Assembly (NCBI GenBank): GCA_015056485.1
Contig: SVGD01000015.1
Location: forward strand, 1 to 33,763
From: Clostridiales bacterium
GTDB taxonomy: Bacteria; Bacillota; Clostridia; TANB77; CAG-508
DNA length: 33,763 nucleotides
Direction of reading: 5' to 3'
This document shows positions 13,197 through 13,916 of the stretch, piece after piece. The notes below the pieces were generated by a model, which searched no databases, was not told where the DNA came from, and saw only the letters and a program-made list of their open reading frames with translations. Position numbers and translations under genes: made by a program. Every line of letters starts with the position of its first letter. Position 1 is the first letter of the stretch.

Positions 13197-13916
13197 TTAT
13201 CTCTTACAAACTTTAACTCCAACAAATCCTAAAACAATTGCAACTAAAATAACAATATAAAATTTATTATTTATTTGTATATTATTGCTTCCTGTTTTTG
13301 GGGTTGTATCTTTAATATTTGGTTCTTGAACTTGTTCTTCAATTTTTTCTAATTCTTGTGTTGGTTCATCTTCTGGCAAGTCGACTTTCTCTTGAGCAAA
13401 TGTTGCTTTTACAGTTACATCATAATCAGGCATTGTGAAAGAATTATTTACTACATCTACTTTAACATTTTCATCTGCTGAGTTATATGCTACAAGGCTT
13501 TCTAAAACATATCCTGGAGCTGGTTCTACAGTTAATGTTATTTGTTCATCTTTAGCTGCTGATGTATGACTAGATGTAACTTTACCATTTTCAGTTTCTA
13601 ATATTGTTATAGATTTTGAACCACGCAAACGTAAAACTAAATGCAAAGTTGATTCTTTTTGAATATTATAATCTGATAAAGTTTTTCCTTCTTCAAGCTG
13701 CTTTCCAGCAAATATTAATCTTTGTTGGTCTGGTGGGATACCCTCTTTTTCTTGAATTTTTGCTTTTATAGCATCAATGCTATCATTAGGTTCTACTTCA
13801 AGAGTAATAGTTTTTTCATTAAGTGTTTTTACGAATATTTGCATAGCTTGAACTTGAGTTGAAATTATACATATCATGAAAAACAGTATAACAGTAATAA
13901 ATAATTTTTTCTTCAT
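13197..13916 (-). CDS. Secreted, wall-anchored ubiquitin fusion protein
   Basis: 239 residues. Residues 1-24 are a signal peptide (lysine-rich start, hydrophobic core, VQA before the cut), so the mature chain would begin exactly at ubiquitin Met1. Residues 25-100 (DNA 13617-13844) match human ubiquitin at 65 of 76 positions by eye. Lys 6, 11, 27, 29, 33, 48 and 63, and Leu8-Ile44-His68-Val70 are all kept; the end is RLRGS, not RLRGG. Residues about 101-178 resemble a divergent InlB B-repeat (LTVEPAPGYVL, FTMPDYDVTVKATF). An acidic linker leads to TPKTG (205-209), a hydrophobic helix (220-236) and tail CKR, a sortase-type signal. The site AAGGGGGAA precedes the ATG; a TATAAT lies just upstream but its -35 is weak. 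Codons are AT-rich like the neighbours. Inferred role: host-facing ubiquitin mimic. Confidence 0.95.
   Translation of the reverse strand: MKKKLFITVILFFMICIISTQVQAMQIFVKTLNEKTITLEVEPNDSIDAIKAKIQEKEGIPPDQQRLIFAGKQLEEGKTLSDYNIQKESTLHLVLRLRGSKSITILETENGKVTSSHTSAAKDEQITLTVEPAPGYVLESLVAYNSADENVKVDVVNNSFTMPDYDVTVKATFAQEKVDLPEDEPTQELEKIEEQVQEPNIKDTTPKTGSNNIQINNKFYIVILVAIVLGFVGVKVCKR

What the first reader, a model, noticed from the sequence alone, without database searches (positions are those of the whole stretch)
13617..13844. Near-authentic eukaryotic-type ubiquitin in a clostridial genome
Residues 25-100 of the minus-strand gene match human ubiquitin at 65 of 76 positions (hand alignment). All seven lysines, Met1, and the L8/I44/H68/V70 surface are intact, with changes mainly at 9-10, 20-26, 32, 52 and 54. 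Bacteroides fragilis encodes a secreted ubiquitin (BfUbb), so this class exists, but a Gram-positive, wall-anchored form is, as far as I know, not described. The gene has a bacterial ribosome binding site, terminator, AT-rich codons and bacterial neighbours, so eukaryotic contamination is unlikely. It probably acts on host ubiquitin enzymes in the gut or on immune recognition of ubiquitin.
Basis: partly seen in the sequence, partly recalled or inferred. Interest (0 to 1): 0.95.

Follow-up and report, generated by a model that had tools for sequence, protein, structure and literature searches.

The report
Wall-anchored ubiquitin displayed by bacteria
A bacterium of the clostridia, likely from an animal gut, carries a gene for a near-copy (65 of 76 residues) of animal ubiquitin that has lost its last, joining glycine, is predicted to be exported and fixed to the cell wall on a stalk, and likely serves to grip ubiquitin-recognising proteins of other cells; the same head recurs on predicted exported proteins in records from many bacterial phyla.

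Summary
Window 13197-13916(-) encodes 239 aa: a predicted signal peptide, a 76-residue ubiquitin (65/76 identical to a chimpanzee polyubiquitin unit), an InlB-type repeat, PKTG, a membrane helix and a basic tail.

It is bacterial. A sister species' 149-kb contig, largely collinear, keeps the gene. The same genome has another protein with this kind of stalk and anchor, and six sortase matches. Ruminococcus albus 7 carries a relative on a complete plasmid.

It is not alone. A scan of bacterial and archaeal genomes gave 480 relatives; of the 80 kept, 68 have a predicted signal peptide before ubiquitin. Tails include autotransporter barrels, dockerins and PxTG signals. Only 9 of 67 exported heads end in GG; of 72 heads, 71 keep I44 and 72 keep H68. 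Between the sister genes dN/dS is 0.09 for ubiquitin and 0.65 for the tail.

Best reading: a displayed, non-conjugatable ubiquitin mimic, likely binding ubiquitin-recognising proteins of eukaryotic cells nearby. Display is well supported by sequence; the partner is inferred. The nearest characterised protein is the secreted toxin BfUbb of Bacteroides fragilis. Seven paper searches showed no description of anchored forms.

The parts
13197..13916 (-). Whole gene, 239 aa: predicted exported ubiquitin-headed surface protein
   Evidence: ORF; PF00240 and PF18998
13845..13916 (-). Predicted signal peptide, residues 1-24, ending VQA directly before ubiquitin Met1
   Evidence: Sequence; helix 2-20 in the model; same layout in 60 of 80 relatives by a hydropathy rule; no dedicated signal-peptide program was used
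13617..13844 (-). Ubiquitin domain, residues 25-100, ends LRLRGS
   Evidence: 65/76 identical to the P0049 unit; Foldseek to 4zft_B rmsd 0.5 over 76 columns
13389..13610 (-). Divergent InlB B-repeat (Flg_new_2), stalk
   Evidence: PF18998 E 6.3e-12, residues 103-176; block pLDDT 90-95 over residues 101-170
13290..13301 (-). PKTG, sortase-signal-like motif
   Evidence: Sequence; pattern place; PKTG with a hydrophobic stretch and basic end also in three other proteins of this genome that I judge convincing
13203..13265 (-). Predicted membrane helix, residues 218-238, running into the basic end KVCKR
   Evidence: Model helix 218-238, low confidence; hydropathy 3.5
13922..13928 (-). Ribosome binding site GGGGGAA
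   Evidence: Sequence
13153..13194 (-). A+T-rich terminator-like hairpin with U run
   Evidence: Fold z -7.23; sequence
13949..14095 (.). 147-bp repeat element between the ubiquitin gene and the upstream radical-SAM gene; absent at this place in the sister species
   Evidence: Gap in the window-L016 alignment; 10 matches in the own genome, this one included, one other at 100%
14078..15007 (-). tRNA-modification radical SAM gene (TIGR01212, MnmL/YtqA), directly upstream; in the sister species the ubiquitin gene begins 12 bases behind it

Best explanation
The gene encodes a ubiquitin head on an InlB-type stalk that is predicted to be exported, trimmed to expose ubiquitin's Met1 and fixed to the wall by sortase, where it likely works as a ubiquitin mimic that would not be conjugated and would grip ubiquitin-recognising proteins of eukaryotic cells met in the gut (host, protozoa or fungi). 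Shown by sequence: the head, the loss of G76, the stalk, the sorting-type tail, the strong constraint on the head against the loose tail, and the recurrence of heads behind predicted signal peptides in records from many phyla. Inferred: cleavage, wall anchoring, binding through the L8/I44/H68/V70 face, and the eukaryotic nature of the partner. I cannot say which partner it is.
For: Layout: signal peptide directly before Met1 and anchor-type tails behind. The own genome has 6 sortase matches over cut-off and another protein with a similar stalk and PKTG anchor (45% identity over query residues 101-217). Selection: between the window and its sister L016 the head has 12 synonymous and 5 non-synonymous differences, the tail about 15 and 35 (Fisher p 0.0045; dN/dS 0.09 and 0.65); median dN/dS 0.069 over the 434 of 2,556 pairs of 72 heads that were neither saturated nor too close. 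Pattern of constraint in 72 bacterial heads: I44 71, H68 72, V70 65, K48 68, K63 70, K27 72, against G75 36, G76 13, both glycines 9. In yeast R42, I44, K48, G75 and G76 are the sensitive positions under the control condition (PMC4862753, passages); the bacterial heads keep the first three and mostly lack G76. 9 of 67 exported heads end in GG, against 7 of 12 without a predicted signal peptide (p 0.0017), though some of those 12 are probably eukaryotic DNA.
Against: No partner, no binding and no anchoring was tested. The high conservation is partly selected by the scan itself: its patterns were MQIFVKTL and DYNIQKE and only the best 80 of 480 were kept, which inflates Q2, F4, K6, L8, D58, N60, K63 and others in those words; I44, H68, V70 and K48 are outside the patterns. 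Recent capture from eukaryotes could also leave a eukaryote-like face, and 74 columns do not resolve the tree. PKTG departs from LPXTG and no sortase was matched to it. The gene is accessory: 4 of 17 genomes of the genus, the window's included, have a match, one of them with stops in the frame (L004).
Confidence: 0.45

Rival explanations
1. A contact-dependent or released antibacterial protein, working as BfUbb does: the ubiquitin head would enter a competitor's envelope and block an essential protein.
For: BfUbb is the bacterial ubiquitin with a demonstrated activity: a signal peptide placed so that mature BfUbb starts at ubiquitin's first residue, no terminal glycine, potent activity of the 76-residue protein against some B. 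fragilis strains (PMC5705921, abstract and discussion). Another paper says that Tyr119 of a B. fragilis peptidyl-prolyl isomerase decides sensitivity (Jiang et al. 2024, seen only as cited in PMC12396204). Accessory presence and broken copies would suit a competition gene.
Against: The head is joined to a stalk and anchor rather than free; no C-terminal Cys; none of the 20 window proteins scanned with Pfam looked like an immunity gene (not all window ORFs were scanned); strong constraint on the eukaryote-like face is not what rapid toxin-target change predicts.
Confidence: 0.25
2. A structural head only: ubiquitin is a small, very stable fold used as a tip or cap on surface proteins, with no ubiquitin-specific partner.
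For: Joined to many unrelated stalks and anchors; some heads drift further (L005, L008; L075 56 of 76, L086 57 of 76).
Against: A mere cap would not need I44, H68, K48 and most lysines; dN/dS of the head is about a seventh of the tail's.
Confidence: 0.2
3. Eukaryotic contamination or a chimeric assembly.
For: The genome is in 40 contigs, 94% complete, 2.6% contaminated, and the head is nearly eukaryotic; L057 of the scan is a polyubiquitin and probably eukaryotic DNA.
Against: A 149-kb sister contig has the same gene behind the same radical SAM gene; the sister's head has 30% G+C in a 26% G+C locus; a repeat family of this genome lies beside the gene; a complete plasmid of R. albus 7 and isolate genomes carry heads behind signal peptides.
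Confidence: 0.02

Closest known systems
BfUbb, secreted ubiquitin of Bacteroides fragilis (PMC3352274, PMC5705921)
   Same: Bacterial, signal peptide placed directly before ubiquitin residue 1, terminal GG lost
   Different: BfUbb is 63% identical to human ubiquitin, free, 76 residues, ends in Cys; here 86% to the chimpanzee unit, joined to a stalk with a PKTG anchor, residue 76 Ser. BfUbb's own sequence was not fetched or compared here
Ruminococcus albus 7 'ubiquitin family protein' WP_013483628.1 on pRUMAL01 (L011)
   Same: Clostridial, signal peptide directly before ubiquitin, no GG (RANGD)
   Different: Different tail without PKTG; on a plasmid; 74% identical over the head
Sortase-dependent surface proteins with InlB/Flg_new_2 repeats
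   Same: Signal peptide, repeat stalk, PxTG, membrane helix, basic end
   Different: Head is ubiquitin; motif PKTG; NCBIfam EF0750_LPXTG match is far below its cut-off (20.7 of 47 bits)
Secreted ubiquitin of the nematode Globodera rostochiensis (described in PMC5705921)
   Same: Signal peptide before ubiquitin, tail behind it
   Different: Animal gene, 12-residue tail cleaved off in the plant, no wall anchor

Membership tests
Ubiquitin family (PF00240) | Sequence match and beta-grasp fold | tested here: met
   E 3.7e-30; Foldseek to single-ubiquitin chains, rmsd 0.5-2.2 over about 75 columns among those listed
Conjugatable ubiquitin | C-terminal Gly75-Gly76, processed free | tested here: not met
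   Gly75-Ser76 followed by 139 residues
Conjugatable ubiquitin | E1 and E2 partners in the genome | tested here: inconclusive
   E2 search empty but its controls were empty too; one ThiF protein, best NCBIfam match TcdA, below cut-off
BfUbb-type secreted ubiquitin | Signal peptide placed directly before ubiquitin residue 1 | tested here: met
   Sequence; relatives by hydropathy rule; cleavage itself not tested
BfUbb-type secreted ubiquitin | Free 76-residue mature protein ending in Cys | tested here: not met
   139-residue tail, residue 76 Ser
BfUbb-type secreted ubiquitin | Kills sensitive bacteria | not testable with these tools
   Needs purified protein
Sortase-anchored surface protein | Sorting motif, membrane helix, basic end | tested here: met
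   TPKTG, a variant without the Leu of LPXTG; helix 218-238; KVCKR
Sortase-anchored surface protein | Sortase in the genome | tested here: met
   6 matches over cut-off
Sortase-anchored surface protein | Covalent attachment to the wall | not testable with these tools
   Needs wall fractionation

The most novel reading that the evidence does not exclude
Bacteria of many phyla share a trade not yet described: they display ubiquitin on their surface, using whatever anchor their lineage owns, with the conjugation tail removed and the recognition face kept, to deceive or hold the ubiquitin-reading machinery of eukaryotes around them (animal hosts, protozoa, fungi). The window's head belongs to a ruminant-gut sublineage that has passed between families of Clostridia and into rumen Bacteroidales.
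Probability: 0.35. Interest if true: 0.92.

Novelty: new variant of a known kind. Interest (0 to 1): 0.8.

Why it matters
Secreted ubiquitin in bacteria is known chiefly from B. fragilis. Here it is a recurring head of predicted exported proteins in records named for nine bacterial phyla, under purifying selection where that could be measured, with a split between the kept recognition face and the mostly lost joining tail. That makes it directly testable whether bacteria show ubiquitin to eukaryotic cells, with bearing on gut immunity, autoimmunity to ubiquitin and grazing by protozoa.

Tried and rejected
Protein search with the whole protein was swamped by eukaryotic polyubiquitins: 7937 candidates scored, 120 listed; the named rows among them are eukaryotic, many rows are unnamed, so it gave no family count. 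Plasmid records: 3 matches, of which R. albus is the only close ubiquitin; Pseudoalteromonas shioyasakiensis matches at 38.6% over the head and Monoglobus only over the tail. Phage records: no match; PHROGs: none. The tree of 113 rows on 74 columns (L037 and L087 left out) has 3 starred of 109 inner branches and 72 open ones; it cannot tell one capture from several, and bacterial and eukaryotic rows are mixed outside the gut group. The window stands with 18 other Clostridia rows at SH-aLRT 88, drawn open; the next fork out (23 rows, also 88 and open) adds L025, two rumen Bacteroidales rows and one Tetrahymena unit, a lead on a ciliate source and no more. The state set S22+E32+E52+K54 is in 18 of these 19 rows and in L025, L052, L054, and in 0 of 90 eukaryotic units taken from the listed hits; the 19 rows were picked on a tree made from these same sites, so only the 0 of 90 is independent, and each state alone occurs in 1 to 20 of the 90. 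Contamination rejected. The first look for a terminator failed for lack of G+C. A pattern for the anchor with a further fixed residue found only the window's own copy; the looser one found 16 places against 8 of its reversed control; my script flagged 6 as sorting-like and I judge 4 convincing, the window's included. The statement that anchored forms were not seen in print rests on the listings of seven searches aimed at them; the other three were on BfUbb and on ubiquitin mutation scans. This library lacks most subscription journals, and its search notes say that no bioRxiv preprints are held.

Full report
What is there. The minus-strand ORF 13197-13916 encodes 239 residues. Residues 1-24 are a hydrophobic leader ending VQA; residues 25-100 are ubiquitin; 103-176 match the divergent InlB B-repeat PF18998; then come a linker, DTTPKTG, a hydrophobic stretch and KVCKR. 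AlphaFold2 on seven sequences gave block pLDDT 76-89 over the head, 90-95 over residues 101-170, and under 50 for 179-220 and 235-239; mean 74.1, pTM 0.41, so the relative placement of the domains means nothing. Foldseek finds ubiquitin: its top ranks are linear di- and tetra-ubiquitin aligned at rmsd 8-16, the single-ubiquitin chains fit best, for example 4zft_B at rmsd 0.5 over 76 columns.

How near to ubiquitin. 65 of 76 residues equal the unit in P0049. The eleven changes are at 9, 10, 20, 22, 24, 25, 26, 32, 52, 54 and 76; I did not map them on a structure.

It is a bacterial gene. L016 is a 20-kb stretch of a 149,017-base contig of a goat-rectum MAG (JAFSBT010000004.1; the same length as G003:C7, a sister genome of the same genus). 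It is largely collinear with window 5.2-24.6 kb, gene after gene, with gaps: the window's genes at 8438-9304, 9857-13121 and 15054-15533 have no counterpart in that stretch, so the two sides differ just downstream of the ubiquitin gene. In the sister the ubiquitin gene starts 12 bases behind the radical SAM gene (TIGR01212), an operon-like layout. In the window a 147-bp repeat lies between them, absent from the sister there and with 10 matches in the own genome, this one included. Three further species of the genus with a close radical SAM orthologue (G002, G010, G016) have other genes beside it within 1.5 kb. So the gene is accessory. Counting the window's own genome, 4 of 17 genomes of the genus and 8 of 292 of the family match PF00240 at E 0.001 or better, 7 of the 292 over the cut-off; in a class-wide draw 7 of 391, 5 over the cut-off.

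The anchor looks home-made. The own genome has 6 sortase matches. It also has a protein with another head but a similar stalk and PKTG tail (G000:C20, 45% identity over query residues 101-217). Of 16 places for a PKTG pattern, I judge 4 convincing sorting tails, the window's included. The ubiquitin head thus seems to have been set on a surface-protein frame that this lineage already used.

It belongs to a wide class. The scan of genome contigs found 480 relatives and kept 80. By a hydropathy rule of my own, 60 have a signal peptide ending directly before ubiquitin Met1, 8 have one with a linker or a looser end, 12 have none. Of these 12, L087 has its frame interrupted 12 codons upstream but ends like the leaders of L071 and L082, and L057 is polyubiquitin. 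For the 68 with a leader, the record names give 40 Bacillota, 13 Pseudomonadota, 4 Bacteroidota, 3 Verrucomicrobiota, 2 Actinomycetota, 1 each of Cyanobacteriota, Fibrobacterota, Planctomycetota, Lindowiibacteriota and Methanobacteriota, and 1 without a phylum. Most are MAGs and names can be wrong; the Methanothrix record is doubtful, and the cyanobacterial protein is nearly that of a Methylophilaceae record (L026, L022). 21 of 68 titles name goat, sheep, deer or buffalo gut. Isolates are Conexibacter sp. CPCC 206217, Dyella sp. OK004, Methylolobus aquaticus FWC3 and Rhodobacter amnigenus HSP-20, besides R. albus 7. Of 67 scanned members (L037, whose frame ends inside the head, was left out), 9 match an autotransporter barrel, 8 a dockerin, 1 an S-layer domain, 1 a T9SS tail, 1 IPTL-CTERM and 1 VPLPA-CTERM, at E 0.001 or better; 4 of 67 have PxTG with a hydrophobic stretch. 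So most of the 67 have a tail that these searches do not name as an anchor. The Dyella protein is free ubiquitin behind a leader and ends RGG, 75 of 76 identical.

Selection. Window against sister: head dS 0.31, dN 0.028; tail of 129 aligned residues dS 0.20, dN 0.127; counts 12:5 against about 15:35, Fisher p 0.0045. Over 72 heads (the window, four other loci and 67 of the 80), 434 pairs could be used and 2,122 were saturated or too close; median dN/dS 0.069. By position: L8 71, I44 71, H68 72, V70 65, R42 67, K6 64, K11 60, K27 72, K29 71, K33 69, K48 68, K63 70, R72 61, L73 47, R74 48, G75 36, G76 13 of 72. In yeast R42, I44, K48, G75 and G76 are the sensitive positions under the control condition (PMC4862753, passages). 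The bacterial heads keep the first three, keep G75 in half and G76 in 13 of 72. The scan's own patterns raise some of these counts (MQIFVKTL, DYNIQKE), but not R42, I44, K48, H68 or V70.

How it would work. The simplest account of a kept recognition face, a lost joining tail, a leader, and an anchor at the far end is display of a ubiquitin that others can hold but not use. The partner would be a ubiquitin-reading protein of a eukaryotic cell. Extracellular ubiquitin has been reported to act on CXCR4, which others dispute (PMC10892293, passages). I rate display well supported and the eukaryotic partner a reasoned guess. The BfUbb precedent pulls the other way, towards killing of bacteria; I give it 0.25.

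Against what is known. BfUbb (PMC3352274, first part and passages; PMC5705921, first part, passages and discussion) has the same leader layout and loss of GG, but it is free and ends in Cys. The 2017 paper says B. [quoted passage not shown] In the listings of seven searches aimed at it I saw no account of wall-anchored or multi-phylum forms; NCBI's automatic name for the R. albus protein exists. I file this as a new variant of the known kind.

Noticed in passing
window 13949-14095: A 147-bp repeat element with 10 matches in the genome, this one included (one other copy identical), lies between the ubiquitin and radical SAM genes and overlaps the end of the latter; absent there in the sister species.
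   Followed up: partly
L005 (G003:C5), L002 (G008), L007 and L010 (G116): The family holds further ubiquitin-headed proteins with other tails, and G003 and G116 carry two each; L005's head has drifted and is one residue shorter, but by eye keeps I44 and H68.
   Followed up: partly
L004, L008: Relatives with stop codons in the frame, as if these genes decay often.
   Followed up: no
L013, L021, L038, L075: Short clostridial forms: leader, ubiquitin, about 40 residues with a CxxC pair and a hydrophobic C-terminal stretch.
   Followed up: no
L044 10001-10228: Dyella sp. OK004 encodes a leader followed by free ubiquitin ending RGG, 75 of 76 identical to the animal unit.
   Followed up: no
L011 7992-8732: In R. 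albus the ubiquitin gene lies in a run of same-strand genes on pRUMAL01 (about 3452-10342 of the locus) that also holds a phospholipase C-domain gene and a dockerin gene, with two genes between it and each of them.
   Followed up: no
L140, L141: Surface proteins with a repeat-like head on an InlB-type stalk and PKTG anchor, in the window's genome and its sister.
   Followed up: partly
window 9857-13121: About 3.3 kb of genes (phosphoribosyltransferase, TPP enzyme, P-loop kinase) downstream of the ubiquitin gene have no counterpart in the sister's stretch L016.
   Followed up: no
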